Position numbers and translations under genes: made by a program. From Solirubrobacter phytolaccae (GTDB taxonomy: Bacteria; Actinomycetota; Thermoleophilia; Solirubrobacterales; Solirubrobacteraceae), in contig NZ_JAPDDP010000048.1 of assembly GCF_027587195.1 (NCBI RefSeq), positions 1 to 54,510 on the forward strand: DNA of 54,510 nucleotides. Reading direction: 5' to 3'. The notes below the pieces were generated by a model, which saw only the letters and a program-made list of their open reading frames with translations, did no database searches and was not told the origin of the DNA. Shown here in pieces: positions 12,639 through 27,491 of this stretch. Positions within the stretch are counted from its first letter, which is position 1. Each line of letters starts with the position of its first letter.

Positions 12639-13478
12639 CCCGCGCTTGGCGGGCTTCGCCGAAGGCGGCGGCACCATCGGGCCGATGTCGCCGTCGGGCG
12701 CCTCGTCCAGGTCGAGGATCACGGGTGCGTGGTCGCTCGGACCGGACCCCTTACGTGCGAGTCGATCCACCCAGGCGGCTTTGCGGCGCTCCGCCACTGG
12801 CTCGCTCGCGAGGATCAGGTCGATCCGCATGCCCAGGTCCTTGTGGAACATGCCGGCCCGATAGTCCCAGTACGTGAACACGCGTTCCTCGGGCCAGCGT
12901 TCCCTGACCACGTCGCGGAGCGCCTTGGCGTCTTGGAGTGCGGTCAGCGCGTTCCGCTCCGCGGGCGTCACGTGCGTCGAGCCGACGTACGCCTCGGGGT
13001 CGAACACGTCCTCGTCCGTCGGAGCGATGTTCACGTCTCCGAGCACGATGGCCGCGTCGGGTCCGCTCGCGACCATCTCTTTGAGCGCTTCGAGCCACTT
13101 GAGCTTGTACTCGTAGTGCTCCGAATCGGGCTGGCGCCCGTTCGGGACGTACACGCACGTGGTCCTGATGCCGCCGGTCGTGGCCGTGACGGCGCGCGCC
13201 TCCTGATGCGGGAATCCAGGGCCGTTTGGAATGCCCTTGACGACGTCGTCGAGGCCGACCTTGGAGAGGATCGCGACGCCGTTCCACGCCGCCTCCCCAT
13301 GAGCCGCAACCTCGTACCCACGCGCGCTGAGCTCGTCGCTGAGGAGGTCCGTGAAGGCCTCGTCGGTGAGCTTCGTCTCCTGCAGACACACCACGTCGGG
13401 CTTGCGCTCGTCCAACCACGGCAGCAGCCGAGGCACCCGCTGCTTGACCGAGTTCACGTTCCAGGTCGCGATTCGCAC
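12612..13478 (-). CDS. xthA: Exodeoxyribonuclease III / AP endonuclease
   Basis: The 288-residue protein is a complete exonuclease III. Visible catalytic blocks are MRIATWNVNSVKQR at the N-terminus, LQETKL with the metal-binding Glu, YVPNGR, LGDVNIAP with the Asp-Asn pair, LRDVVRERWPEE, and the C-terminal SDHAPVILDL with the catalytic Asp-His. It removes 3' blocks and cuts at abasic sites in base-excision repair. The family is usually about 260-270 residues; here a Pro/Lys-rich tail of about 25 residues is added after the last strand. It marks the last clearly housekeeping gene before the accessory region. Confidence 0.95.
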   Translation of the reverse strand: MRIATWNVNSVKQRVPRLLPWLDERKPDVVCLQETKLTDEAFTDLLSDELSARGYEVAAHGEAAWNGVAILSKVGLDDVVKGIPNGPGFPHQEARAVTATTGGIRTTCVYVPNGRQPDSEHYEYKLKWLEALKEMVASGPDAAIVLGDVNIAPTDEDVFDPEAYVGSTHVTPAERNALTALQDAKALRDVVRERWPEERVFTYWDYRAGMFHKDLGMRIDLILASEPVAERRKAAWVDRLARKGSGPSDHAPVILDLDEAPDGDIGPMVPPPSAKPAKRGSHKLPQAP

Positions 13479-14021
13479 GTCCTTCAGCCTACGGCGGACG
13501 TCTGACGAGTAGACCTTTGCCGTGCGAGTCGGCCCGCGTCGGCACCTCCCTGCGCTCGCCCCCGAACCCTTGTCGGCGGGCTGTCTGGTTTGCGGGGCTC
13601 TTAAGTGCGCTGGGAGGTACCGCCGCGTGCCGCCCAGAATCGTGGGCTGGCGAACGTGGCGCCTTCTCTTTGACGGGGCGTGCGGAGGGAGGCTCCGAAA
13701 GATGCCGTGGCCTTTCGCCTCCTTGGCTTCCCGGAGATCAAGTCAGCCCCCCGCTTGATCGCCACGGCGTCCCTCCGGAACCTGACCCTCGGGCGGGCAT
13801 TCCCTGACATCTCCGGTCCTTCGGAGCACTCGAGCGCGCCCCTGGTGGCATAGACCCAAGCTGGCAGGCACCGGCGCTACGACACGGGCCCGCCTCGCGC
13901 AGATGAGCGGTCGGGACGTTGCGCCAAGTCGAGTGCGACGACGCGGCGGCCACTGTCGCTATCACGCGAAAGGAGCAGTGCGACCGTACGCACGCCCGGC
14001 GTCGAAGCGTGAATCAGATCG
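13479..14021. other. Gene-poor junction between xthA and the accessory region
   Basis: I see no convincing coding frame, tRNA, or terminator hairpin with a T-run in these 543 bases. Short open frames on both strands lack family features and have compositions typical of random high-GC frames. The stretch sits at the left edge of the accessory island, where an insertion boundary would be expected, but no repeat matching the right side was found by eye. Confidence 0.4.
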
Positions 14022-16034
14022 CTAGGCGGCGTGACGCTTGACAAGCGGAATGATCTCCGCCAGCGCCGGTTCGCTGGATTTGACCTTAGGCCCTTCCCGG
14101 GTCCAGCCTTCAAAGTCGTGGACAATCGTCTTGTCGCCGGGCTCGCGCGGCGCCAACTTGCGTGCGAGGATGTCCGCGTATCGCCGATCGTGAGTTGTGA
14201 CGATCAGCTGTCGTCTCCCGCGGAGTCGGCGAAACAGGTCTCCGAAACCGAGCACCGCGACGGTGTCGAGGGACTGCAGCGGATCGTCGAGAATAAGGAA
14301 TGGCAGCATCGCGTCGTGAGCGTTGAGCGCCATCCCGAGGAAGTACGAGAGCGCGACGACGTTCACCTGTCCCTCGCTGAAAACAAGCAGTGGGTTGGCT
14401 TCGAGTTCACGAATTGGGTCGTACACGACGGGCTTGACCTGATTCGCCTTTCTGAAGACATCCTGTCGCGAGCGCAGCTCAGTGAACGCCGGATTTGGAT
14501 TCAAGCGGTCGAAGACTTCGGCGAAGCTTGGCTGTAGCTTCGCAAGCGCGCCGGCGATGATCCGTTCAGCGGCCGCGTGGGCACTGTCGTCGAGCGCCTT
14601 GGCGCTCTCGTAGCTGCGGTCGAGAGCCGAGAGCTCTGTAGTCATCGCGGCCAACTCGGTTTCGAGCGCGTTGGCCTCGGCGTCTAGCCGCTCTAGGTGA
14701 GCCGCGGCACTAGCCTGCCGCAGTTCGCGCCAAAGGATTCGCGACTCTCCAAGTGTTCGCTCGAAGCCGTCGACGGCGGATTGAAGCTCATCGGGATCGT
14801 CCGGAACCTCGGCGAGCCGCATCCCGCTCTCGGCGGCGACGGCTTCGCGAAGCGCGGCGCGCGCCGTCGCAGTCTCGTGAGCGATGCGCTGTGCCTCTTC
14901 GAGCCCCAGACGCGCGGCGGACAGCCGTGACGACGACGAGGCAAGTGCGTCATTCGCCTCCTGTACAGCCGACACCAACTCGCTTGACATGGCGACGGTC
15001 TCCCGAAGACGGTCGGCGAGCGTTGTTCGGTCGACGGACTGACCGCACACAGGACAGGTGTCGTCGGCAAGCAGCGAGAGCGCCGCTTCGGCGAGTCGTA
15101 TTGCAGCGGGACCGCGGCGGGTTGCCTCGTCGAGGCGTTCGCGGGCTTCCGTGACCTCGCGCTCGATCGACTCGATGCCGGCCGCGTCCACCGCTGGGGC
15201 ACGCGTGCCCTTGACCCGCAGGTCACGCAGCACCACGAGCGCCTCGCTGACGTTTCGGAGCGCGCGGCCGAACGCTGTGACGTCCGTTGCTGTAGGGACG
15301 TCGTAGACAAAACCTCGCGGAAGCTTCCGGCTCAGCCGATCAAGCGACGCGCGAACGGCATCATCGCCGGATGTCGCCGGAACCTCCGCTCGGGCAACCC
15401 GCGCACGCTCAACCGCTTCCTGACGGCGATGCTTGAGTGCTTCGAAGGCACGGTTGGAGGCTGTCCGCCGTGTGAGGAGATCACGCGCGGCCTGCTTCGT
15501 CGCGGATGAGAACGCAGTGACCCGCTCCAGGCCCACGATGGCGGCAATCCGGTCGTGCATCGCCGCCCCAGCGTCAAGCGTCGCACGCACGGCGTCTTGG
15601 CGGAGGATCCCCCACGTGTTCACGCTGACGGCGAGCGCTTCCGCGTCAGTGTGCCCGAACACCTCCGCCAGAATCCGTTCTGCCCCGGGCTGCTGCCGAC
15701 CATTGCGCACGGCGGTGAGCGTCGACGCGCGGTGTCTACCGGATCGAGTGAACACATACGGCTCGTCGTCGGCGGTTAACTCGATCACCACGCGGGCCTC
15801 ACCGCCGGCGTACCGACTCACAACCGGATCGTGGTCCTTCCGCATCCCTTTTACCCGCTGGTCGAGGTACTCGAGGTCGCCCGACAGGAGCCACAGGAAC
15901 CCGTCGACGAGGGATGTCTTGCCCGATCCGTTGTTCCCGCGCACGAGCACGACGTCGGCGTCGAGGTCGAGCGACTGCGCGCGGGTGAATCCTCGGAACC
16001 CTTCGAGTTGGATGGACGTGAACTGAACGGACAT
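14022..16034 (-). CDS. SMC/Rad50-like ABC ATPase, LmuB-like component of a Lamassu-type system
   Basis: This 670-residue protein has the Walker A motif GNNGSGKT at residues 33-40. A helical, coiled-coil-forming middle about 180-540 is interrupted by a zinc-hook motif CPVCGQ (Cys 327 and 330), and the C-terminal ATPase half carries a signature-like FSEGQVNV, Walker B FLILDDPLQSLD and the switch THDRR. This is the Rad50/SbcC/RecF plan with short arms, as in LmuB of Lamassu and the ABC ATPase of ABC three-component systems. It is the last gene of a coupled operon, its ATG overlapping the previous stop as TGATG. The likely role is to sense foreign DNA structure and release the SIR2 effector. The role is inferred from family and context. 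Confidence 0.85.
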   Translation of the reverse strand: MSVQFTSIQLEGFRGFTRAQSLDLDADVVLVRGNNGSGKTSLVDGFLWLLSGDLEYLDQRVKGMRKDHDPVVSRYAGGEARVVIELTADDEPYVFTRSGRHRASTLTAVRNGRQQPGAERILAEVFGHTDAEALAVSVNTWGILRQDAVRATLDAGAAMHDRIAAIVGLERVTAFSSATKQAARDLLTRRTASNRAFEALKHRRQEAVERARVARAEVPATSGDDAVRASLDRLSRKLPRGFVYDVPTATDVTAFGRALRNVSEALVVLRDLRVKGTRAPAVDAAGIESIEREVTEARERLDEATRRGPAAIRLAEAALSLLADDTCPVCGQSVDRTTLADRLRETVAMSSELVSAVQEANDALASSSSRLSAARLGLEEAQRIAHETATARAALREAVAAESGMRLAEVPDDPDELQSAVDGFERTLGESRILWRELRQASAAAHLERLDAEANALETELAAMTTELSALDRSYESAKALDDSAHAAAERIIAGALAKLQPSFAEVFDRLNPNPAFTELRSRQDVFRKANQVKPVVYDPIRELEANPLLVFSEGQVNVVALSYFLGMALNAHDAMLPFLILDDPLQSLDTVAVLGFGDLFRRLRGRRQLIVTTHDRRYADILARKLAPREPGDKTIVHDFEGWTREGPKVKSSEPALAEIIPLVKRHAA

Positions 16035-16570
16035 CAGGGGATTTTCACCTCGCCGGTTGCCTCGAACGAGCGCATCGCGGCCTTGACTAGAGCCTCGTCT
16101 TGCCCGTCTGCAAGCAGGGCCTGGCGCACCGCGTCGAGCGGGTTCTCGAGGCTGATGCTCTCCGTCGCGCGCAGGGGCAGCAATGGGAGCAACGCTCGCG
16201 TGACTGCCTCGTCTTCTTCGATCGCGGGTCCCGCAAGGATGAGTTTGCGCGCATACCGCGTGTCGTGCTCAAGCTGTTCCCGGATGAGATCGTTCGCAGC
16301 GTCAGCCGCCGTCCGGATCGCGACGATGACGTAGAGGTCCCAGCTTCGCGGAGATGGTTCGCGACCGGCGATCTCGGTGAGAGTCGCCTGCGCGTCTTCA
16401 ACCGTCTGAACGACGGTGTCCCACTCTGCCTCGGTGACGAGCACAAGCGCGTGTGGGGTTTCGGCCAGGAGCGTTGCGCCGAGCCTCTGCAGCGCACGCG
16501 TCTCGACAGCGAAGCCTCCTGTCTCAAGAACCCGACCGATTGATGCAAGTTCTTCCCGCAGCTTGTTCAT
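16034..16570 (-). CDS. Small helical protein, probable LmuC-like middle component
   Basis: The 178-residue soluble protein is rich in helices and acidic residues (REELASIGRVLETGGFAVET, WDTVVQTVEDAQATLTEIAG, DLYVIVAIRTAADAANDLI) and has no recognised enzymatic motif. Its identification rests on position: it lies between the SIR2 gene, which it overlaps by 4 nt (ATGA), and the SMC-like gene, which it overlaps by 1 nt (TGATG). In Lamassu and ABC three-component systems a small poorly conserved middle protein links effector and SMC ATPase, and this order and size match. The terminal motif LVKAAMRSFEATGEVKIP follows a possible small partner-binding helix. No function can be read from sequence alone. 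Confidence 0.7.
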   Translation of the reverse strand: MNKLREELASIGRVLETGGFAVETRALQRLGATLLAETPHALVLVTEAEWDTVVQTVEDAQATLTEIAGREPSPRSWDLYVIVAIRTAADAANDLIREQLEHDTRYARKLILAGPAIEEDEAVTRALLPLLPLRATESISLENPLDAVRQALLADGQDEALVKAAMRSFEATGEVKIP

Positions 16571-18093
16571 GCCGCTAGCGCCCCTGCCACAGCGTCTTCG
16601 GCACGCACCAGGCGAACGTCCCCGACAGTCTCGCTTCCAACGTCGCCGACGGCGACGTCTTCCGCCGCAATGTCGGGCGGAGCGCTGGGTGACGGAAAGC
16701 TGCCGCGACCGCCGTGAACCACCGCAGCAACGGATAGGCCTGGCCGAAGACGACCCACGTTTCGACCACGCCGTACGCGCTCGCGCACCTTCCGATCGAT
16801 ATCTGCGAATGTCAACTCAGGCATAGACGCGATCTCGAGATACCGGTACTCCGACCGCACCGTCAGATGCTCTTCGCCGCCGGTGACGTGAACCGTTCCT
16901 CCGTCGTGGGAGGCCATCAGCGACACCGCCATCAACGTTTCGCGGCCGCGCTCGTCCAGCACGAACGCACGGCCGTCTTGATCCGATGTCACCCCGTCAC
17001 GCCACCACCGGAGAATGCCGTTCGCGGGGGCCTGTTCGAACGCGGCACGCACGGTCTCAAAGCCAGCAAGCATGCGCTTCGTCCACTCCGCCTCGTCCAC
17101 CAACTCGCGAACAGCGGCTCCGGTCCTCGACAATGCGTCGGCCACCAGCGCGCGGAGGAGATCATCGAGAAATGCGTCGGCACCCATCACAATCTCGACG
17201 TCGGCCGCCGCTTCGCCCAATGTCTTCTTCCAAGCATCCGACACGCCGAACAGGTCGACCACTCGTACGGTGGCACCGTCGAGCGCCCACAACTCGACGA
17301 TGTCCTTGATGGGCTCGGTGACGTACATGCCGACTGTTCCGAGGCCGAGGAACACCACCATGCCGGCGGCGACGGCGCGCGCAACCTCAGCCTTCGCCCA
17401 GCCTTGCGGCGCGTCGACCTCGGCTTTCGTGACCGCGAGCGTTTGCGGTCGTTTCGCACATCCGTGGACCTTGTAGAGCCGCAGCGCCTGGCGAGGTTGA
17501 AGGCGTTCCTGTTGGCTGGCGACCGCTTCAATCTCGAGGTCGATTCGGCGCGCCGCATTCTCGATTCCGCGATCCCAATTGACCGACACGCCGGTAATGA
17601 CGCCTTCGCGCATGAGGAGTGCAACAGCCTGATGTCCATAGTTGGGCTCCATGGTTCGGAACTCCGCGGCTTCGGAGGCTCGAACCTTGAAATCCGCCAT
17701 GCGACCGGGCGCCTCACGCGCCACTCGGGCCGCAAGCGATTCGAGATCAGGCTCAGTGACGTCCGTTGTCCGCGCGTTGACAAGCTCCGCGACGAAAGGT
17801 CTGAGCTTGTCGGCAACTTGTGTGCCCTTCGGCCCGCAGGACGGATGCGCGATACTCAGCCCAGCGCCCATGTAGAACACCACCGGTTGGTCCTGCGCCG
17901 CCCGAAGGATCTCGTAGATCGAGACATCCGGTGGAACCGAGAGCGGTTCCGGAGAATGGCGGGATGACGGCGGTCGGCTCGGCGTGGCGGCGTTCTGCGG
18001 AGGGTTGTCCGGTGCAACCTTCCTGCTCAACGGGGAAGTGGGCGTACCCTTAGCGTTCTCCGCTCGTCCATCGCTCGACCGTACCGAATCCAT
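16567..18093 (-). CDS. SIR2-domain protein, predicted NAD-consuming effector (LmuA-like)
   Basis: This 508-residue protein is the first gene of the operon. Residues 1-55 are a Pro/Ser-rich disordered leader. A SIR2-like Rossmann domain spans about 58-325, with FYMGAGLS (GAG motif, residues 76-80), SVNWDRG (catalytic-type Asn 172), LYKVHG (catalytic-type His 210) and a nucleotide-binding-like VVFLGLGTVGMYV. These residues match the Asn/His pair used by defence SIR2 NADases such as ThsA, so activity looks intact. The remaining 180 or so residues match nothing I know and may dock the small protein or SMC. ATG 18093 has an AAAGGG element about 11 nt upstream. The predicted outcome is abortive infection by NAD depletion (inference). 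Confidence 0.82.
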   Translation of the reverse strand: MDSVRSSDGRAENAKGTPTSPLSRKVAPDNPPQNAATPSRPPSSRHSPEPLSVPPDVSIYEILRAAQDQPVVFYMGAGLSIAHPSCGPKGTQVADKLRPFVAELVNARTTDVTEPDLESLAARVAREAPGRMADFKVRASEAAEFRTMEPNYGHQAVALLMREGVITGVSVNWDRGIENAARRIDLEIEAVASQQERLQPRQALRLYKVHGCAKRPQTLAVTKAEVDAPQGWAKAEVARAVAAGMVVFLGLGTVGMYVTEPIKDIVELWALDGATVRVVDLFGVSDAWKKTLGEAAADVEIVMGADAFLDDLLRALVADALSRTGAAVRELVDEAEWTKRMLAGFETVRAAFEQAPANGILRWWRDGVTSDQDGRAFVLDERGRETLMAVSLMASHDGGTVHVTGGEEHLTVRSEYRYLEIASMPELTFADIDRKVRERVRRGRNVGRLRPGLSVAAVVHGGRGSFPSPSAPPDIAAEDVAVGDVGSETVGDVRLVRAEDAVAGALAA

Positions 18094-18420
18094 GGCCGCG
18101 CAACCCTTTCAGATCGGGCATGGGAACTGCAACCTCGTGCTCCGAACGGCGACGCATGCCGCGACGTTCCGAACGGACCGAGCCCACAACGCCCTGCACC
18201 TCCCGCGCGAACGGAGCTGTCTCAGACCTGTCGTGTGCGAGCCGCTGGATGTACGTCGTCTTGAGGCGCCCCCGCGTTATGCGACCTCACCTCCGACCAC
18301 GCGCAAGGACAGATGCTGCGCGAGCGGCCGCCCGAGCGATACCGTCGCTCTGGTGCACGCAACCGGATCATTTCGTTGGTCGCTGGAATCGCATTGACCG
18401 ATCACCCTTTGCGCGTCGCC
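18094..18420. promoter_or_regulatory. Divergent intergenic region between the SIR2 operon and the DUF6602 gene
   Basis: About 330 bases separate the two outward-facing genes and should hold both promoters. The nonamer TCCGAACGG occurs twice within about 40 bases (near 18137 and 18166), a possible regulator site. I cannot identify -35/-10 boxes with confidence. If the DUF6602 gene starts at its upstream ATG 18313, which has AAGGA just before it, this region shrinks to about 220 bases. Confidence 0.35.
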
Positions 18421-19260
18421 ATGCGGGAGATGACAGCCCAGCTTTCGAGCGCGCTCGCAGCCAGCGCCGCCATCGCCCACAACGCCAGCATCGGCGCCGC
18501 GCGCGAAACCGTGGTGCGGGAGTTGCTTGCACCCTATTTGCCGGCACGGTTTCAAACGGCAACCGGTACGGCCGTGAATAAGGTCGGGGAAAGGAGTGAT
18601 CAGCTCGATGTGATGATCGTCGATGGCACTGCCGGAAGGCCGTTCGTGAACGTGGGCGGCCAGAGTGTTGTGCCAGTCGAGCTCATCTACGCCTGCCTGC
18701 AGATCAAGACTTATCTGGCGCCGTCGACTGTCGCCGGGGCGGTCGAAAACCTTGCTTCGCTGCTGCGACTGTTTCCGCCCGGTGACGAAGCTGGTGGGGC
18801 CGAAGAGCGACCGTTCACCGCGATCGTCACCTACAAGGCGACCCGTGACGAGCGCGAGCTGTTCGAAGCCTTCGTCGAGGCCAACCTTCGGCTGCCTCCT
18901 GAAGAGCACGTGAACTGCCTACTCGTTCTCAACAAGTTCGTCACAGTGATGTCCGAGCGGGAGGAAGATCCGGCCAATCCGCACGGCAACTACCACCCGG
19001 TGCCGCGTTACGCGGCTGACCATTGGTCTACTGCTTCGTTTGGCGAAGATTCGACGCTCGCGTTTTACGTCCTGCTGAGCACTGAGCTAGCTGGGTACCG
19101 TCCGCCGGACTTCAGCCCGTGGACGTACGTGACGACCGCTGAACTATTGCCTTCCGGAACACTGGCCCGCTACTGGGGCCGCTACGACGACCCCGACGAA
19201 CTGGCCGAACGGCGCAGAAGTCGCCACCCCCGCAAGAGACGGAAGCGGCGCGCCGACTGA
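18421..19260 (+). CDS. DUF6602-domain protein, PD-(D/E)XK-nuclease-like
   Basis: The protein of about 280 residues resembles DUF6602 proteins. An N-terminal helix with H-x7-G-x2-RE (AHNASIGAARETVV) is followed by LLAPYLPARFQTATG, then QLDVMIVD and YACLQIKTYL, giving the Asp and Q-x-K strand pattern of a restriction-endonuclease fold. The Q-x-K variant occurs in Mrr-like nucleases, so catalysis is possible but unproven. The tail is very basic (RRSRHPRKRRKRR). The frame is open from ATG 18313. I prefer ATG 18421, or 18430, because the preceding 36 residues look unlike the family. It is divergent from the SIR2 operon and could be an added defence component or an independent nuclease. Confidence 0.65.
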   Translation: MREMTAQLSSALAASAAIAHNASIGAARETVVRELLAPYLPARFQTATGTAVNKVGERSDQLDVMIVDGTAGRPFVNVGGQSVVPVELIYACLQIKTYLAPSTVAGAVENLASLLRLFPPGDEAGGAEERPFTAIVTYKATRDERELFEAFVEANLRLPPEEHVNCLLVLNKFVTVMSEREEDPANPHGNYHPVPRYAADHWSTASFGEDSTLAFYVLLSTELAGYRPPDFSPWTYVTTAELLPSGTLARYWGRYDDPDELAERRRSRHPRKRRKRRAD

Positions 19261-20611: not shown

Positions 20612-21016
20612 CTTCTGACAGATTATCCGCCGAAGCTGACGCGATCAACACGATCAGGCACCAACGTGGCCCGCCTCCAGGAGGGAAGACGTTGCACGTG
20701 ACGGGAGCGATACCGAAGGGCGACTCGGCTACGGGGTTTCCATTGAGGGTCGCCGAAGTGCTCGCAAGGCAACGATGCCTTGACCACCACGGCCTAACTG
20801 CCGGGGCCAAGAAGACTCGGGCGAGTGCCGTGTGACCGCCGCTGCTTTGCGCGAAGCGCGAGGACGAAGCTCGGCCAAACCTGGCCGCCTATCACGGGTG
20901 AAGTGCTCACCTATCCGAACAGCGCGGCGCTCGTCGCTAAGTGCTCTCGCGTGCGGAGATACAAGTGTCCGGGCCCACCGGACCGTGCCGCCTCCCTGAC
21001 CGGTAGATCTTGGGTG
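20612..21016. other. Intergenic region with a hairpin, between small membrane pair and HEPN-like gene
   Basis: This 405-base divergent gap should carry promoters for both sides. An open plus-strand frame ending at 20835 (containing FPLRVAEVLARQRC) and an overlapping minus-strand frame both lack supporting features, so neither is called. The only clear structure is the 7-bp hairpin listed separately. No RNA gene was recognised. Confidence 0.35.
20765..20782. repeat. Perfect hairpin CAAGGCA/TGCCTTG
   Basis: Two 7-bp complementary arms, CAAGGCA and TGCCTTG, flank the 4-base loop ACGA. There is no downstream T-run, so a classic intrinsic terminator is not supported. It could be an operator or an RNA hairpin. 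The position is about 235 bases upstream of the HEPN-like start. Confidence 0.4.
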
Positions 21017-22627
21017 ATGACAACGTCGCCACTCGATCCCGCCACTGCGGAACGCACTACGAGACTTCGAGGGATGCTCAGGGATGCTCAAGCGCGGGCC
21101 GGCGATCGGTCAGTGCTTGGCCAGCATCTCGCCGTGGTCGCGCTGGATGGAGTCGCCGAACTCGCGATGCACCTTTGCGCTTACGAACTATCGCTGCAGC
21201 CGGCACGCGAGTGGCTGAAGCTGCTCAAACAGTTGCGCGATGAGCTTGGGTCAAAATGGGACGGCGCTGGAGCTCAGGGAGCGGATGAGCTTCATCGATC
21301 ACGAAACCTCGTCCAACACGCAGGAGTGCTTCCCCACCCGGACCAGTTGGCTCGATGGGCGGCCGATGTTGAGCGGTTCGTCCGAGGCCTAACTTCCGCT
21401 GCGCTCGGAATCGATCTCGCCCACGCTACGTCCGGGCTTGCGATCAAGGATACGGAGCTGAGACGCCTAATTGATGAGGCAGAAGGGCTCCTCCTCGCTG
21501 GCGACGCACCCGGCGCATTTGCGTTGACGTGCAACGCTCTGGACGCAGCTCGACGGGCGTGGTCGTCTCGTGGCGGGAGCGCTGACGACCCCTTCGGTGG
21601 ACCTTTTGGTCGGTCCCCCCAATTCGACGAGTTCCGACAGGCGAACGCGGCGTTCCAGGAGGTCTACGACCGTCTCGATGTGGCGACCTTCACCTCTGAT
21701 CTCGGTGAGTGGATCTGGCTGCGGCAACAACTCGAGGAAAGCCGCAAGCGGTCGCCGCCGACCGCCGAAGACGCGCAGCGCGCTCTCGCCTTCGTCGTCG
21801 GCTGGATCCTCCGATACGAGAGCTATGTCACCCGGTATCCCGAAGAACGGTGGCGTGCTTGGCGGGATTCCCAGCGAGCTCCAACGACGGGCGTGCCCGG
21901 AGGGCCTCACATCACCGTGCTCGACGTTCAGCCATGGCGCGCGACGCAGGCTTCAGGAGTCGAGTGGACGTTCGCGTTGTCTGACCTTCCCGCGCCGGAC
22001 GACATCTTCTCATGGGCGGTGTCCGTGGCGTCAGGCGATCTGCGATCAGCCGGAGAAGCGGGCAGCGCATACCTCGGGCTGCGAGGGGAACTCAAGGTTC
22101 GAGTTCCTCCCGACACCACTGAAACGAGAGTCCTCGCGATCGTGCGCAACCTTCTCGCTGACGCCGGGATCGCTCTTCGGCGTCGCGACGAAAGGCTTCG
22201 CCAGGAGGAGGAAGACATTGCAGCGCTCGCAGCTCCCTTTGCGTCCGCCCTCAAAGGCTCGGCGCTCCCCGTCAACGCGATCAGCGCACGCGTCGCGGAC
22301 CCGAAGCATCCACAGCGGTCTCCAGCGGCCGTGAGCGTCGAGTTGGAGCTCGACGACGCACTCAACCGCGAACTACCGGAAGCTCTATCCATCGTCGCAA
22401 ACGAAATCGGCCTTGCCATGACATCGCCTCCGATGGCGTGGGGCGGAACAGTGTGGTTCGCACCAGAATTGTCTCCCGAGTCTGTAGTGCGCTGGCTTAG
22501 TCTCGGTCTCGAGCGCGCCCGCGCGGCGGGCGAGGAACGCGAACGAGTCGCGGCAGAAGGCGAACAGCGGCGGATCGCGACACTGGCGTCGATGCGTCGC
22601 CTTCTCGAGATTCAGGAACCACAGTGA
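21017..22627 (+). CDS. Uncharacterised protein with N-terminal HEPN-like domain
   Basis: The 536-residue soluble protein starts at ATG 21017. Residues 30-125 form an all-helical block (LAVVALDGVAELAMHLCAYEL, WLKLLKQLRDELG) leading to HRSRNLVQHAG, a perfect R-x4-H motif (Arg 96, His 101) preceded and followed as in HEPN ribonucleases, then DQLARWAADVERFVRGL. A second helical stretch about 130-300 resembles a tetratricopeptide-like or second HEPN-like bundle. The C-terminal third alternates strands and helices, with a charged coiled-coil end (LERARAAGEERERVAAEGEQ). No overall family is recognised. The island context suggests an RNA-cleaving immunity protein, which is inference. Confidence 0.6.
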   Translation: MTTSPLDPATAERTTRLRGMLRDAQARAGDRSVLGQHLAVVALDGVAELAMHLCAYELSLQPAREWLKLLKQLRDELGSKWDGAGAQGADELHRSRNLVQHAGVLPHPDQLARWAADVERFVRGLTSAALGIDLAHATSGLAIKDTELRRLIDEAEGLLLAGDAPGAFALTCNALDAARRAWSSRGGSADDPFGGPFGRSPQFDEFRQANAAFQEVYDRLDVATFTSDLGEWIWLRQQLEESRKRSPPTAEDAQRALAFVVGWILRYESYVTRYPEERWRAWRDSQRAPTTGVPGGPHITVLDVQPWRATQASGVEWTFALSDLPAPDDIFSWAVSVASGDLRSAGEAGSAYLGLRGELKVRVPPDTTETRVLAIVRNLLADAGIALRRRDERLRQEEEDIAALAAPFASALKGSALPVNAISARVADPKHPQRSPAAVSVELELDDALNRELPEALSIVANEIGLAMTSPPMAWGGTVWFAPELSPESVVRWLSLGLERARAAGEERERVAAEGEQRRIATLASMRRLLEIQEPQ

Positions 22628-22727
22628 CCCGCCGCCCGAGCCGTCCACGGCAATCTCTCGCGAACGTGCGGGCTGGTGGAACTCCGCGCAGGGACCTGTC
22701 GAGGGACTGATCTCCCGGCCAGACCGA

Positions 22728-22743
22728 CTATCGCTTTGCGCGA
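22728..22743 (+). repeat. Left copy of 16-bp direct repeat, candidate attachment site
   Basis: The sequence CTATCGCTTTGCGCGA is found here and again, identical and in the same orientation, at 25195-25210. This copy lies 24 bases from the stop end of the broken integrase, where attachment sites of tyrosine-recombinase elements normally sit. Confidence 0.5.
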
Positions 22744-22767
22744 CGTCCAGCCGCGAATCGGAAGGCG

Positions 22768-23455
22768 TCAGCGTGTGGTGCGTACGGGGATCATGGGTGC
22801 GCGTCGGGCGTGGACGGTGTCGATGATCTCGGCGTTGTCGATTCCTTGGAGGTAGATCGAGGTGATGCCGAGGTTGCTGTGGCCGAGCTGTCGTTGAATC
22901 ACGATCAGCGGGACGCCTTCGTGAGCCATCTCGACTGCGTGGGCGTGGCGAAGCTGGTGCGGTGCGAAGCGCCTGCGGACTCTCGCCGCGGCTGCGGCGT
23001 GCCGTAACTCGTTGCGCGCGGCTGCGGTTGTCCAGCGTGGTCCGCGGGTCGGGCCGGTGATGATGCAGAACAGCGGTCCGACTGGGAGCTCGAGCCGGCT
23101 GACGAGCCACGGTTGGAGTTCTTGCCAGGCCCAGTCGTCCCATGCCGACCTCGCGACGGCGACCGCCTTTGCCGCGGCGAACCAGGACCGCCCCGCGGCG
23201 CGTCCAGGTCGGACTCAGCGAGCGCGAGGGCTTCGCTGATCCGAAGCCCCGCGCGCCAGAGCACGGCGATCAGCCCGCGCAGCCGCTGACCGTGCAGCGA
23301 TCACCGGCGGCGCGCATGACCGAGACGATCTCCTCCACTGTGGGCGGATCGGCCGGGTAGCGCAGGCCCTTGTTCCGTGGCGGGCGGCCGGCATGAAAGC
23401 CGGGCATCGTGGCCGGCGAACGGCGGCGACCGGCGACATCGAGCATCTGCGACAT
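22768..23455 (-). pseudogene. Tyrosine recombinase/integrase, inactivated by three frameshifts
   Basis: Reading across frames from ATG 23455, which has a strong GGGAGG site 6 bases upstream, gives a nearly full integrase of about 229 residues. It runs N-terminal segment (MSQMLDVAG, FHAGRPPRNKGLRYPADPP), then after a shift near 23300 the catalytic-Arg block LWRAGLRISEALALAESDLD, after a second shift near 23200 RRGAVLVRRGKGGRRREVGM, and after a third near 23140 the C-terminal half with PHQLRHAHAVEMAHEG, QRQLGHSNLGITSIYLQG and the stop at 22768. The catalytic Arg, His-x-x-Arg-His, His and Tyr are all still visible, so decay is recent or partly sequencing error. Similar integrases are, from memory, common in Solirubrobacter-type genomes. 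Confidence 0.8.
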
Positions 23456-23706
23456 CGTGTCCTCCCTTGGACCGTTGCGATCCGCCGAGGATGCCGATGG
23501 GGCTGGCGGTCCGTCACGGAAGCAACAGTCCGGCGAGGGTGGAACACGCCGGGATCGCACCGACCCTGAGCATGGGAAGCGATAGTCGGATCGCGCGGGC
23601 GCCGCGGGCCTTGCGATCACCCGCGTCACATGCAGGTATACAGCGGGCTGTTACGCGACGGCCGGCCCCCTCGTGTTGGGGCACGACGTGACGCGTCCGG
23701 CGGACT

Positions 23707-24900
23707 CTACGCGCCACCAACCTTCAGACGCCCGACGACATCGTAGTTCTCGGCGATGAAAGACGCGAAGAAAGGATCAAGGAGTTCCTTAGCCGCGGGG
23801 CCTGGAGAGGTGGCTAGATCCCAGCTGCGAAAAAGACCGGTAGCGGCGTACTCCGTGTCGGCGACCTTGGGCATGTTGTCGTGTGCGGTGCGCCCTCGAG
23901 ATGCGTGAAACGACACCGAACCGTCGAGGCCTTCGATGCGAACACCGCATCGCAGAATGCCAGCGGTCGCAGTTTTGGAGAAGAAGTGGCCCGCGAACGC
24001 GAGTTGCCCCATCAGCTCGGAAGCCCACTGGTGCTCGAACGCACAAAAGCCTATGCCGGATTCCGTGAGCAACGGGCGAGTCGTTACAAACGAGAATCCG
24101 GAGGAATACCGAAGTGCAGCAGCCACAAACACGTTGTCCTTGAGCCGCTCGACGTCCTCGGCGACGTATCCCGCTTTCCAGCCGGTCGAGCCGAGAGGCG
24201 TCCAGTTGACGAGCCAGTCGAAGGTATTGGGTTGAAGATGCACGTCTATCTGCACAGGTACGAGTTCGCCCGCTGCGGCCCGCACCGATTCCGCGAGGGG
24301 GCGGCTGAGCCACGGCGCCGCCGGGTGTCGTGCTTCGTTAAGGGGCAGGATCTGAAGTCGCATACGCCCGATGCCCCGATAGCTGCTATTGCCGGCGTCT
24401 GGTGGCCACGTGAACTCGTCCATCGGGTCGCGCTCATCCGCAAGGTGCAGCATCGAGCGCCGTCGGTCATACAGCCGTTCCAGCTCTGGCTCTTCGAGGT
24501 ATCGCGTCGTCGTCTCGGCTCTCGCGGGGAAGCGGTTCTCGACCATGTGCGGCGCCCACGGTGAGGGCGGCACTTCGAGGACCAGGAGACCATTCGAATC
24601 GCCTCTCGTCTTGGTCAGTGCCTCAAGTTCGAAATGCAAAGGCGGCCGCACGCGGCTCGAGATGATCTGCGAGAGCCTCTCGGCGGCGCCTTTCAGTGGG
24701 ATGGGCGTTGCTTGCGTGGCGAGGCCGTTGACTTCGTCCATACCGATCAAGATCACTCCGCCGTCGATGCTCATCGCGGCAGCGTCCTTTGCGAGATCCT
24801 TGGGGTTCGCGGCAAGGTCGCGCTTGAAATCCAGGTCTGAAGCCTCTTCAAGTGCTCCGATCGCGGCGAGCGCCTCACCATATGTCCGTGGTCTCCACAC
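23707..24900 (-). CDS. Schlafen AlbA_2-domain protein
   Basis: This is a 397-residue protein. Residues about 10-150 match the AlbA_2 (Schlafen core-like) domain: E-x3-LDFKRDLA, DLAKDAAAMSIDGGVILIGMDE, then a long strand-rich segment through RPPLHFELEALTK and GLLVLEVPPSPWAPHM. The motif ATTTRYLEEPELERLYDRR fits the end of the domain. Residues 170-397 are unassigned. AlbA_2 proteins bind nucleic acid and are frequent in mobile and defence regions, some as tRNA/RNA nucleases or regulators. The start is GTG 24900, with GAGAGG 9 bases upstream. It lies inside the direct-repeat-bounded segment beside the dead integrase. Confidence 0.75.
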   Translation of the reverse strand: MWRPRTYGEALAAIGALEEASDLDFKRDLAANPKDLAKDAAAMSIDGGVILIGMDEVNGLATQATPIPLKGAAERLSQIISSRVRPPLHFELEALTKTRGDSNGLLVLEVPPSPWAPHMVENRFPARAETTTRYLEEPELERLYDRRRSMLHLADERDPMDEFTWPPDAGNSSYRGIGRMRLQILPLNEARHPAAPWLSRPLAESVRAAAGELVPVQIDVHLQPNTFDWLVNWTPLGSTGWKAGYVAEDVERLKDNVFVAAALRYSSGFSFVTTRPLLTESGIGFCAFEHQWASELMGQLAFAGHFFSKTATAGILRCGVRIEGLDGSVSFHASRGRTAHDNMPKVADTEYAATGLFRSWDLATSPGPAAKELLDPFFASFIAENYDVVGRLKVGGA

Positions 24901-25394
24901 ATCAGGAAGCCTCTCAAACCACGAGCGTCACTGCTCCAGCTTCGGTCGTCACGCGGCGGCGGGCATGCGTCGTTCCGGCGTCGCACGGGCGAGAGGGCGA
25001 AAGCGCTTCTCACCGACGAAACGGCTGGCGCGGCGGATCACTTTCCCAAGGAGTGCTCGGCTCTCTCATACGCCGGCCCTAGTCCGCCGACGACACGTGA
25101 GCAATGCCAACACGGGCGACCTCGGCCCTGTTTGGCGGGGTGGCTGGCTGCTCCTACCGACGATGGGGAGCGGTCCGCGCCGGCGCGGACGTCGCTATCG
25201 CTTTGCGCGAGAACCGCCAGCGTTGAAGTGCCCGTCGGCGTTTCATAACCGGAGCGGAGCATCGATGCGCCTGCACGCGCTCGCGGAGACATACGAGGCG
25301 ACTGGTGGCGGGCTTCGACGTCGCTCGCCCTCCGCGCATCGCGTGCGCGGAGGAGCGCGGCGCAAAAGCTAACGCTGTCCGAGTGCTACGGCGC
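24901..25394. other. Right end of accessory region, no supported gene
   Basis: This stretch of almost 500 bases holds the second 16-bp repeat at 25195-25210 but no convincing gene. A small plus frame at 25264-25371 (MRLHALAETYEATGG) lacks a recognised family and a ribosome site. Typical chromosomal composition resumes with the VOC gene. Confidence 0.4.
25195..25210 (+). repeat. Right copy of 16-bp direct repeat, candidate attachment site
   Basis: Identical to 22728-22743 (CTATCGCTTTGCGCGA) and in the same orientation. It lies in the noncoding stretch upstream of the AlbA_2 gene, near the place where chromosomal-style sequence resumes. Confidence 0.5.
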
Positions 25395-25844
25395 TTACGG
25401 AGTTGAGGCGACGCCCAGGACCCAGGTCACTCCGAAACGGTCGGTGAGCATCCCGAATCCTGCGCTCCACGCCGATGCGGCGAGGGGCTCGACGATCGCC
25501 GATCCGGCGGAGAGCTTGTCCCAGTAGCCCTGCACCTCGGTGAGGGATTCGCCTTCGACGGAGACGAAGAACGGCTGGTCGGTGATGGTGACGCCGTTCT
25601 CGCGGCGGGTGGCGCCCGCGTTGGCCGGCGAGCCGTCGGTCTTTCCGGGGATGTCGTAGGCGAAGCCGGCGTCGCTCTCGACCTTGCCGAAGACGACGCG
25701 ATCGGCGCCGGGCGCGTCCTTGGGCATGCCGAAGTCGCCGTAGGTGGCGATTACGGGCAGTCCGCCGAAGACGGACGCGTAGAACTCCAGCGCCGCGCGG
25801 GCGTCGCCGTGGAAGTTCAGGTGGGGAGTCGCGTTGATCCTCAT
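25395..25844 (-). CDS. VOC-superfamily (PhnB-like) protein
   Basis: The 149-residue protein has the PhnB/3-demethylubiquinone-methyltransferase-like VOC pattern: NATPHLNFHGDARAALEFYASVFGG at the N-terminus (read in short blocks), a central PFFVSVEGESLTEVQGYWDKLSAGS and the C-terminal FGMLTDRFGVTWVLGV. Such single-domain VOC proteins are small dimeric enzymes or binding proteins whose substrate is usually unknown. It is divergent from a WYL regulator, with only 61 bases between starts and a perfect palindrome in that gap, so it is very probably that regulator's target. Confidence 0.88.
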   Translation of the reverse strand: MRINATPHLNFHGDARAALEFYASVFGGLPVIATYGDFGMPKDAPGADRVVFGKVESDAGFAYDIPGKTDGSPANAGATRRENGVTITDQPFFVSVEGESLTEVQGYWDKLSAGSAIVEPLAASAWSAGFGMLTDRFGVTWVLGVASTP

Positions 25845-25865
25845 GCCTCCACTGTCACATCCATG

Positions 25866-25884
25866 TAGGACCGTTTTGGTCCTA
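25866..25884. promoter_or_regulatory. Palindromic operator TAGGACC-N5-GGTCCTA between VOC and WYL genes
   Basis: Two perfect 7-bp inverted arms, TAGGACC and GGTCCTA, are separated by GTTTT. The site sits in the 61-bp divergent gap, 22 bases upstream of the regulator ATG and 21 bases upstream of the VOC ATG. A further half-site-like GGACTA follows near 25890. The position and symmetry fit an operator bound by the WYL/HTH_11 regulator, controlling both genes. A terminator is excluded because both genes point away. Confidence 0.65.
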
Positions 25885-25905
25885 GACTTGGACTAGATTT
25901 GGGTG

Positions 25906-26883
25906 ATGTCGTCGACGACCTCGCGCCTGCTCAGCCTGCTGTCGCTGCTGCAGGCCCGGCGTGACTGGTCTGGCGCTGTGCTCGCCGAGCGGCTGGGCAT
26001 CAGCCATCGCACGGTCCGCCGCGACATCGACCGGTTGCGCGAGATGGGCTACAGCATCCGGGCCACGATGGGCCCGGACGGCGGATACCGCCTCGACGCG
26101 GGCAGCGAGTTGCCACCGCTGCTGTTCGACGATGATCAGGTGATCGCGCTCGCCGTCGCGCTGCAGTCGGCGACCGCCAGCGGCGCGGAGATCGGCGAAG
26201 CGGCGGTACGGGCCCTGGCCACCGTGCGTCAGGTGATGCCCTCCCGGGTGCGCCACCGGCTCGATGCGTTGTCGTTCACGACGGTGCCCGCTCGACCAGG
26301 GACCGGAGTGGCTGATCCAGAGGTGCTTGTCGCGTTGTCGACCGCGGCGCGCGCCCGCGAAGTGCTGCGCTTCGACTACGCGAGCCGTGAACCGGGCGGC
26401 GAGGAGACCTCGAGCCTGCCGCGCAAGGTTGAACCGCACCACCTCGTCACGTCCCACGGTCGGTGGTACCTCGTGGCGTGGGACCTCACGCTCGACGACT
26501 GGCGCATCTTCCGCGCTGATCGCATCACCCCGCGTGCCTTCACCGGTCCGCGATTCGTGCCTCGCGAGATCCCGGGCGGTGACGTGGCCGAGTACGTGTC
26601 CGCCCGTTTCAAGGGCTCTGATCGGATCAACCGGTGGCCGTGCACAGGACGGGCCATCCTCGGCCGACCGGCCCGCGACGTCCTCCCGTTCGCCGGTGAT
26701 GGCGTTGTCGAGGATCTCGGCGACGATCGGTGCATCCTCGAGCTTGGTGCATGGTCCTGGATCGGCGTCGCCGCTTCGCTCAACCGCTTCGACACCGATG
26801 TCGAAGTGATCGGCCCGCCCGAACTCAGAGTGGCGTTCGAGAAGCTCGCCACGCGGAACGCTGCGACGGCCAAAGGTTCGTGA
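25906..26883 (+). CDS. YafY-type HTH/WYL-domain transcriptional regulator
   Basis: The protein of about 325 residues has an N-terminal HTH_11 domain (RLLSLLSLLQARRDWSGAVL, AERLGISHRTVRRDIDRLREMGY) with wing GPDGGYRLDAG, a middle helical region, and a WYL domain at about 145-220 with the signature HGRWYLVAWDL and RIFRADRI. The C-terminal WCX-like extension includes AWSWIGVAASLNRF. WYL regulators sense nucleotides or other small ligands and often govern a VOC or DinB-like gene beside them. GTG 25903 precedes ATG 25906. Autoregulation through the palindrome at 25866-25884 is expected. Confidence 0.9.
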   Translation: MSSTTSRLLSLLSLLQARRDWSGAVLAERLGISHRTVRRDIDRLREMGYSIRATMGPDGGYRLDAGSELPPLLFDDDQVIALAVALQSATASGAEIGEAAVRALATVRQVMPSRVRHRLDALSFTTVPARPGTGVADPEVLVALSTAARAREVLRFDYASREPGGEETSSLPRKVEPHHLVTSHGRWYLVAWDLTLDDWRIFRADRITPRAFTGPRFVPREIPGGDVAEYVSARFKGSDRINRWPCTGRAILGRPARDVLPFAGDGVVEDLGDDRCILELGAWSWIGVAASLNRFDTDVEVIGPPELRVAFEKLATRNAATAKGS

Positions 26884-27178: not shown

Positions 27179-27221
27179 GACGCTCCTCCTGGGCTTCCAG
27201 CTGTCGGACATCTGGGTCGAT

Positions 27222-27446
27222 CTAGTCGTCGAGATCCTTGCGGAGGCGGGCGTGATCGACCGGGGGCGCACCGGCAAAGACGGCAAGCACGGCGTCGCGA
27301 TCGACGACTTGACGCGAGCGAGTAGGGCTCAGCTCCCCGACCGGGACGCCGTTGCAGGTCACCGTGAAGCTCTCCCCCCGGTTGAGCGCGCGCATGATCT
27401 CGCCACTCTGGTTCCGGAGCTCGCGCTGCGTGATCGCTCGTCCCAC
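27222..27446 (-). CDS. Phd/YefM-family antitoxin, apparently orphan
   Basis: The 74-residue frame from GTG 27446 reads VGRAITQRELRNQSGEIMR, then ALNRGESFTVTCNGVPVGEL. This is the N-terminal DNA-binding and dimer domain of Phd/YefM antitoxins, followed by a short toxin-binding tail ending ARLRKDLDD. GTG 27461 is an alternative start. A VapC-type toxin normally starts within a few bases of the antitoxin stop; here only the small Cys-rich protein follows, so the toxin seems lost, replaced or unrecognised. Confidence 0.72.
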   Translation of the reverse strand: MGRAITQRELRNQSGEIMRALNRGESFTVTCNGVPVGELSPTRSRQVVDRDAVLAVFAGAPPVDHARLRKDLDD

Positions 27447-27491
27447 GGACCCAACGTACACAGCGTGCGTGATTCCGTGTACCTTCGGCCG

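What the first reader, a model, noticed from the sequence alone, without database searches (positions are those of the whole stretch)
22728..25210. 16-bp direct repeats bracketing integrase and AlbA_2 gene
CTATCGCTTTGCGCGA occurs twice, perfectly and in the same orientation, 2.45 kb apart. One copy is 24 bases from the integrase 3' end. This is the geometry of an integrated element carrying a single cargo gene, a Schlafen AlbA_2 protein.
Basis: partly seen in the sequence, partly recalled or inferred. Interest (0 to 1): 0.6.

Follow-up and report, generated by a model that had tools for sequence, protein, structure and literature searches.

The report
Recombination sites in defence gene array
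The two identical 16-base repeats look like two of several recombination sites in a soil bacterium's island of virus-defence genes, tied to a small DNA-shuffling enzyme; they may belong to an integron-like gene-capture system in a bacterial group where integrons are rarely found.

Summary
In detail: the 16-mer occurs twice, in the same orientation, nowhere else in the 7.74-Mb draft genome, 24 bases from the integrase stop. The simple reading (one island between attL and attR, with one cargo gene) is only partly supported. The integrase is a frameshifted pseudogene inside its own inverted repeat (22724-22736/23577-23589), where its alignment with an intact own-genome copy also ends. The 16-mer is the spacer plus right arm of a ~26-bp dyad motif that is enriched near relatives of the integrase (36 hits in 514 kb against 1 in 335 kb of other regions), often in same-orientation series. 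In this genome all five matches within 2 mismatches of the consensus lie at the three close integrase-family loci. The window holds a probable third site (C, ~20839) and a tentative fourth (D, 13951-13980), in an island with Lamassu-like and NucC-like genes that starts at a multi-copy 358-bp noncoding repeat. Best reading: a multi-site, integron-like or dif-module-like cassette platform; AlbA_2 is one module and the integrase unit sits in its downstream site. No empty site, excision product or cassette polymorphism was found, so mobility is inferred. The integrase does not pass the IntI model.

The parts
25195..25220 (-). Site A: right arm AAGCGATAG, spacer, left arm CTGGCGGTT; contains copy 2 of the 16-mer (25195-25210)
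   Evidence: score 28.9; 6 of 9 dyad positions
22728..22753 (-). Site B just downstream of the integrase 3' end; contains copy 1 of the 16-mer (22728-22743); its left arm does not match (2 of 9)
   Evidence: score 25.3
20839..20864 (-). Site C, probable third site in the same orientation (15 of 16 bases of the motif TCGCGCAAAGCRRYAG; 3 of 9 dyad positions)
   Evidence: (score 19.0); the 335 kb of other regions had 1 hit above 18
13951..13980 (+). Site D, tentative: dyad CACTGTCGCT-ATCACGCG-AAAGGAGCAGTG about 75 bp after the leader repeat, opposite orientation to A-C, variant spacer
   Evidence: sequence; scored 12.1 by the first matrix but is not the best hit after the leader by the second
22724..22736 (+). 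Arm of the 13-nt inverted repeat CCGACTATCGCTT that brackets the integrase unit; overlaps the right arm of site B
   Evidence: I7
23577..23589 (-). Other arm of that inverted repeat, upstream of the integrase start
   Evidence: I7; the alignment with the second own-genome copy ends within it, at 23580
22768..23455 (-). Integrase pseudogene (tyrosine recombinase, apparently catalytic-domain-only family), broken by three indels relative to the intact copy on contig C114
23707..24900 (-). AlbA_2 (Schlafen-type) gene, module between A and the integrase unit
   Evidence: PF04326, E 6.2e-8; no PADLOC match
20825..22627 (+). 600-aa ORF of unknown family between C and B (true start probably downstream of C, near 21015)
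   Evidence: no family match
18313..19260 (+). DUF6602 / NucC-like nuclease gene
   Evidence: PF20247; Effector NucC model, E 8e-20
16567..18093 (-). SIR2-like gene, candidate effector of the Lamassu/ABC-3C-like operon
   Evidence: PF13289, 22.9 bits, below the 24.5 cutoff
16034..16570 (-). MComp1 (ABC-3C middle component)
   Evidence: PF20289; no PADLOC match
14022..16034 (-). SMC-like ATPase, LmuB-like
   Evidence: LmuB E 5e-39
13519..13876 (+). Leader: 358-bp conserved noncoding repeat at the island's left end, next to xth (12612-13478)

Best explanation
The 16-mers are two core sites of a multi-site, integron-like cassette platform in Solirubrobacter. Each site is an about 26-bp imperfect dyad (9-bp arms around an asymmetric TCGCGC spacer) acted on by a family of about 230-aa, apparently catalytic-domain-only tyrosine recombinases. 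Sites lie in the same orientation between accessory genes, so recombination between neighbours would excise or insert the module between them. In the window, A-AlbA_2-B is one module. The integrase unit inserted at the B site, between its left arm and its spacer/right arm, and so is bracketed by that site's split dyad. The gene between B and C, and probably the Lamassu-like and NucC-like genes up to D and the leader, are further modules. The local integrase is now broken, so any present activity would need the intact C114 copy. Shown: the repeat, its uniqueness in the genome, the motif's enrichment and orientation, locus-specific inverted repeats around the integrase, and homology ends at the sites. 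Inferred: recombination at the sites, cassette mobility, and the target-splitting step.
For: Motif (matrix from 17 sites in the window and L208-L213): 36 hits in 514 kb at 79 named integrase loci, against 1 in 335 kb of 17 arbitrarily chosen regions and 4 in the same loci reversed. Own genome: all 5 matches to TCTCGCGCAAAGCRRYAGTC with up to 2 mismatches lie at the three close integrase-family loci C112, C114 and C158. Neighbouring sites within 3 kb have the same orientation in 22 of 24 pairs (threshold 14) and 15 of 15 (threshold 16). Left arms mirror right arms: 16 of 45 sites against 4.7% of control positions with at least 6 of 9 matches, p 5e-9. Integrase units are bracketed by locus-specific inverted repeats: score at least 12 in 10 of 54 loci against 46 of 2862 cross-locus pairs, 0 of 20,000 permutations as extreme. 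The alignment of the window unit with its 87% identical copy on C114 (3.4 kb compared with window 22001-26000) covers only 22733-23580, i.e. from site B to the other arm; the C158 remnant aligns from 22724. C114 has the same layout: site, small gene, intact integrase, site.
Against: No empty site or excision product was found: flank searches gave either non-syntenic flanks or a homology break without a clear site. The pair G001/G006 is 100% identical over 13.2 kb and shows no cassette difference. Only 23 of the 79 integrase loci have a motif hit at threshold 14. At the low threshold 11 of the first matrix, counts per locus were often no higher than in reversed sequence, also at key loci (L212 3 against 7, L213 5 against 6, L208 6 against 6, L223 0 against 3); the signal lies in the high scores. 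Arms of a site do not match their own partner better than those of other sites (p 0.096 and 0.32). The bracketing inverted repeat is clear in only 10 of 54 loci, and flank limits and threshold were set after a first look (9 of 50 against 4 of 150 at 13 or more). Half of the same-orientation pairs are in training loci that I picked because they looked like arrays; in the other loci the count is 11 of 12 (threshold 14) and 5 of 5 (threshold 16). The intact C114 integrase carries Q where the 22 relatives all have K, so it too may be weak.
Confidence: 0.58

Rival explanations
1. One reading: a 2.45-kb integrated element made of integrase plus AlbA_2, with the 16-mers as attL and attR.
For: Two perfect same-orientation copies, unique in the genome, one 24 bp from the integrase stop; the second integrase copy on C114 also lies between two same-orientation sites 1.9 kb apart.
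Against: A third same-orientation site, C; three sites at C158; the two C114 sites are not identical to each other; the integrase alone is bracketed by an inverted repeat and aligns alone with its copy.
Confidence: 0.17
2. The integrase unit is an IS-like element with its own terminal inverted repeats; the copy at 25195 is the solo end of a second, decayed copy.
For: Inverted repeats at the unit's ends; many decayed copies in the family.
Against: The arms differ from locus to locus instead of being a fixed end sequence; the family search found no second integrase piece next to site A; the motif recurs between other genes without an integrase at each site.
Confidence: 0.12
3. The sites are dif-like sites used by the housekeeping XerC/XerD, and the small integrase is a passenger that inserts at them, as IS1202-family elements do at pdif.
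For: The geometry of arms and spacer resembles dif (recalled); dif modules and dif-targeting IS elements are described in Acinetobacter (PMC6449649 and PMC10132070, search listings and abstract openings only).
Against: In this genome the close matches lie only at the integrase loci; the sequence does not look like dif, whose consensus I recall and did not test.
Confidence: 0.1

Closest known systems
Integrons (IntI / attI / attC)
   Same: Tyrosine recombinase, serial same-orientation sites separating accessory genes, a conserved non-coding region next to a site at one end of some arrays, defence-like cargo
   Different: Integrase far below the IntI model cutoff (TIGR02249, 58-66 bits against 265); the integrase unit sits inside the series, sites are short dyads, and the host is an actinobacterium; [quoted passage not shown]
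dif / pdif modules of Acinetobacter
   Same: Gene modules between short dyad core sites
   Different: Those use host XerC/XerD and, as I recall, inverted neighbouring sites; here neighbours are in the same orientation and a dedicated integrase family is present
FimB/FimE-type DNA invertases
   Same: About 200-aa tyrosine recombinases that align over most of their length (PRK09871 positions 8-172 of 198, 52-60 bits against a cutoff of 222)
   Different: Invertases act on inverted sites (recalled); here same-orientation series predict excision or insertion
Simple Xer-like tyrosine recombinases (XerA/XerD)
   Same: Catalytic fold (XerA best in the fold search, TM 0.64 by query length)
   Different: No core-binding domain is detected: Xer proteins align only from about residue 105-130 on

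Membership tests
Integron | IntI integrase (NCBIfam TIGR02249 above its cutoff) | tested here: not met
   58-66 bits against a cutoff of 265, for three relatives
Integron | attC sites recombined as folded single strands | not tested
   no attC model was run; the sites here are short dyads
Integron | Series of same-orientation sites separating genes | tested here: met
   22 of 24 and 15 of 15 neighbouring pairs, many of them in hand-picked loci; 11 of 12 and 5 of 5 elsewhere. That sites lie between genes was checked by eye in the window only
Integron | Cassette excision and insertion | not testable with these tools
   no empty site or polymorphism found
   probable third site C; three sites at C158
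   flanks are not syntenic in the genus
Tyrosine recombinase (PF00589) | Pfam model and catalytic R..K..HxxR..H..Y (motif recalled) | tested here: met
   PF00589 E 2.6e-14 on the C-terminal piece; R73, K98, H168, R171 and Y203 invariant, H194 nearly so, in 22 relatives; the window copy itself is frameshifted
FimB/FimE invertase | NCBIfam invertase model above its cutoff | tested here: not met
   52-60 bits against 222
dif module | XerC/XerD dependence and host dif match | not tested
   host dif not identified
IS element | Fixed terminal inverted repeat shared by copies | tested here: not met
   in the 10 bracketed loci the arms are locus-specific

The most novel reading that the evidence does not exclude
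An independently evolved integron analogue in Solirubrobacterales (Actinobacteria). A catalytic-domain-only tyrosine recombinase and about 26-bp dyad sites, in Solirubrobacter next to a structured 358-bp leader, collect and shuffle anti-phage genes (Lamassu-like, HamB-like helicase, NucC-like, SEFIR, perhaps AlbA_2). The recombinase gene itself moves by inserting into such sites.
Probability: 0.35. Interest if true: 0.85.

Novelty: new variant of a known kind. Interest (0 to 1): 0.6.

Why it matters
Complete integrons were not found in Actinobacteria in a large survey (PMC9024848, passages). A cassette platform with a different recombinase and a different site would show that gene-capture arrays arose more than once. 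It would offer a way to find new defence genes by reading between sites, and a very small recombinase with a defined short site.

Tried and rejected
A strict 14-mer GCGNAAGCRRYAGC in 146 family genomes was not enriched over its reversed form and was dropped. The 15-mer CGCGCNAAGCRRYAG was not clearly enriched either, but some of its few hits clustered next to integrases and led to the loci fetched. A plain count of AAGCRRYAG near integrases equalled its control (82 against 83), though a few sub-words were above theirs. Unrestricted repeat searches around integrases gave mostly chance matches (output partly cut: 234 direct and 137 inverted, 173 in the reversed control). The test that the two arms of each site match each other better than those of other sites failed. 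Empty-site searches: the right flank (glyoxalase and WYL regulator) is conserved in G001, G006 and G002 but not next to the left flank (xth); for G120 a homology break was found in G133 without a clear site. G001 and G006 are identical over 13.2 kb, so not informative. Cassettes shared between loci: 163 non-integrase, non-leader blocks, the 40 with an end nearest a motif hit listed (best L040/L088, 17 bp); no null was computed and I do not lean on it. Phage origin: no relative in viral contigs. Rfam: no match in 12.0-28.5 kb. tRNA target: none in the window. PADLOC control: 7 of the 10 longest ORFs (one each from 10 of the 17 random regions), 0 hits at 1e-10; 3 of 10 were left out to stay within the length limit. 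By contrast 5 of 10 island proteins had a hit at 1e-10, but most of those were chosen because they looked defence-related; AlbA_2, the 600-aa protein, MComp1 and the gene next to the HamB-like helicase had none, and the SIR2-like protein only weak ones.

Full report
Observation. The 16-mer is present exactly as described, at 22728-22743 and 25195-25210 on the + strand, and nowhere else in the window with up to 2 mismatches or exactly in the whole draft genome. Copy 1 is 24 bases from the integrase stop codon (sequence). The genome belongs to a genus of seven held genomes.

The integrase. The C-terminal piece matches PF00589, but the frame is broken. A second copy in the same genome (contig C114, locus L004, 87% DNA identity) has an intact frame, and the window copy differs from it by three frame-disrupting indels. 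The family is short (about 230 aa). Xer proteins align only from about residue 105-130 on, and the predicted fold of a relative (L039) is a tyrosine-recombinase catalytic domain with a low-confidence N-terminal tail (pLDDT 77, pTM 0.77; XerA best, TM 0.64). The integron integrase model scores 58-66 bits against a cutoff of 265. The genome collection gave 79 named loci (the best 80 of 91 were kept), mostly Solirubrobacterales, with scattered metagenome contigs filed under other phyla that may be misbinned. In the family, 79 of 146 genomes match the unit's DNA at E 0.001, 53 of them at 1e-10 or better; the weaker ones may be chance. None of 78 pattern-matching stretches in viral contigs encodes a relative.

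Ends of the integrase unit. A perfect 13-nt inverted repeat brackets the integrase alone (22724-22736 and 23577-23589). The alignment of the window with the C114 copy covers 22733-23580, and that with the C158 remnant starts at 22724, so the unit ends at or within these arms. I compared upstream and downstream flanks of 54 loci (those of 81 with a long enough match and enough flank): an inverted repeat of score at least 12 is present in 10 of 54 within loci, but in 46 of 2862 cross-locus pairings, and no permutation of 20,000 reached it. Flank limits and threshold were chosen after a first, wider look (9 of 50 against 4 of 150 at 13 or more). The C114 copy is not among the 10 (score 11). The arms differ between loci. 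That is what one expects if the unit inserts between the two arms of an existing dyad site; fixed IS ends would be alike. This step is inference.

The motif. Sites near integrases share T[CT]TCGCGCAAAGCRRYAG. With the first matrix and a low threshold (11), counts per locus were often no higher than in reversed sequence (L212 3 against 7, L213 5 against 6); what stands out is the high scores. A second matrix, built from 17 sites (window and L208-L213), was applied to 79 other integrase loci: 36 hits in 514 kb at threshold 14, against 4 in the same loci reversed, and 1 in 335 kb of 17 arbitrarily chosen regions of the same and related genomes (3 when these are reversed). Hits fall in 23 of the 79 loci; 56 have none. 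The test is nearly but not fully independent, because the first matrix, which helped to find the 17 sites, included sites from L072, L105 and L113. Left arms mirror right arms above control positions (16 of 45 against 4.7% with at least 6 of 9 matches, best of three shifts, p 5e-9), but not specifically within a site (p 0.096 and 0.32). In the own genome the consensus with up to 3 mismatches has 11 matches (reversed control 3). All five with up to 2 mismatches, and one with 3, lie at the three close integrase-family loci C112, C114 and C158; the other five, with 3 mismatches, are scattered. Four further recombinases of the genome are only 33-41% identical.

Series of sites. Neighbouring hits within 3 kb have the same orientation in 22 of 24 pairs (threshold 14) and 15 of 15 (threshold 16); overlapping double hits were merged and duplicate loci dropped. 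Without the hand-picked training loci this is 11 of 12 and 5 of 5. Of three pairs further apart in that output, L211 agrees while L062 and L331 are opposed. In the window A, B and C are one such series (spacings 2467 and 1889). C158 has three sites (1240 and 1516 apart). C114 has two, flanking a small helix-turn-helix gene and the intact integrase. L105 and L209 have three each.

The island. To the left of C lie a NucC-like gene and a Lamassu/ABC-3C-like operon with a weak SIR2 match, and then a 358-bp noncoding repeat next to xth. This repeat has at least 20 full or partial copies in five of the seven genus genomes (those in G006 duplicate those in G001), and only marginal matches in 4 others of the 146. 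Two copies in G002 are 98% identical over 371 bp in inverted orientation 11 kb apart. After the repeat's conserved 3' box a forward motif hit (score at least 8) follows within 170 nt in 4 of 13 copies, one of them a training site, against 0.4% of random windows; in the window this hit is not site D. By eye further copies have a variant with TCACGCG. The repeat folds well (z -2.5 on both strands) and 5 of 84 predicted pairs show double changes. The C114 island carries a HamB-like helicase and a PDDEXK nuclease between the integrase-side site and the leader; the gene beside the helicase had no match, so a complete Hachiman is not shown. The G002 array carries a SEFIR-like gene. The defence link rests on chosen proteins (5 of 10 with a PADLOC hit at 1e-10; AlbA_2 and the 600-aa protein have none), with a small control of 7 proteins (0 hits).

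Mechanism. Most likely the integrase family recombines neighbouring same-orientation core sites, so that a module between two sites can leave or enter. A-AlbA_2-B is one such module. The integrase unit later entered site B between its left arm and its spacer/right arm. The window copy is dead, and the C114 copy is intact in frame but has Q at a position that is K in all 22 relatives aligned. No direct evidence of recombination exists: no empty site, circle or strain polymorphism.

Comparison with print. The tyrosine recombinase survey (PMC8138268, passages) describes simple recombinases with a core-binding plus a catalytic domain, and an integron-like subgroup with a specific insertion. [quoted passage not shown] Searches for Solirubrobacter or Solirubrobacterales recombinases and for non-IntI cassette arrays showed nothing that describes this system in the rows listed, which are in most cases only part of the matches, in an open-access library. 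Defence genes in chromosomal integrons are known from Vibrio; I recall this in general, and one search gave only listings.

Verdict. The 16-mers are better read as two of several recombination sites in a defence island.

Noticed in passing
window 13519-13876; L208, L212, L263-L267, L327: A 358-bp, strongly conserved, well-folding noncoding repeat with several copies per genome in five of seven Solirubrobacter genomes and no Rfam match; possibly an unknown structured RNA or an array leader.
   Followed up: partly
L208 10047-10416 and L327 9173-9542 (G002:C2): Two leader copies 98% identical and in inverted orientation bracket an 11-kb stretch with a SEFIR-like gene, suggesting recent copying of the leader itself.
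   Followed up: partly
window 27211-27448 and L271 8902-9139: A stretch that appears to code for a Phd-like antitoxin (read from the sequence, no family search), 85% identical in G002, where it follows a leader remnant; in the window it lies 2 kb beyond site A.
   Followed up: no
L072 (1803, 3303, 4328, 4648): Contig with several motif variants of the form CAGGCGNAAGC-like between small ORFs next to a family integrase: perhaps a sister system with a different spacer.
   Followed up: no
L117, integrase match at 4001-4581: A 37-nt imperfect inverted repeat around a decayed integrase copy (arms at -155 and +683 relative to the match start).
   Followed up: no
L210 3544-4179 and L217 9106-9742: A 637-bp block 91% identical between genomes of two different genera, near integrase-family loci: a likely recent transfer.
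   Followed up: partly
L324/L325 (G001:C65, G006:C424): Two genomes held as separate species are 100% identical over 13.2 kb; probably duplicates of one strain.
   Followed up: no
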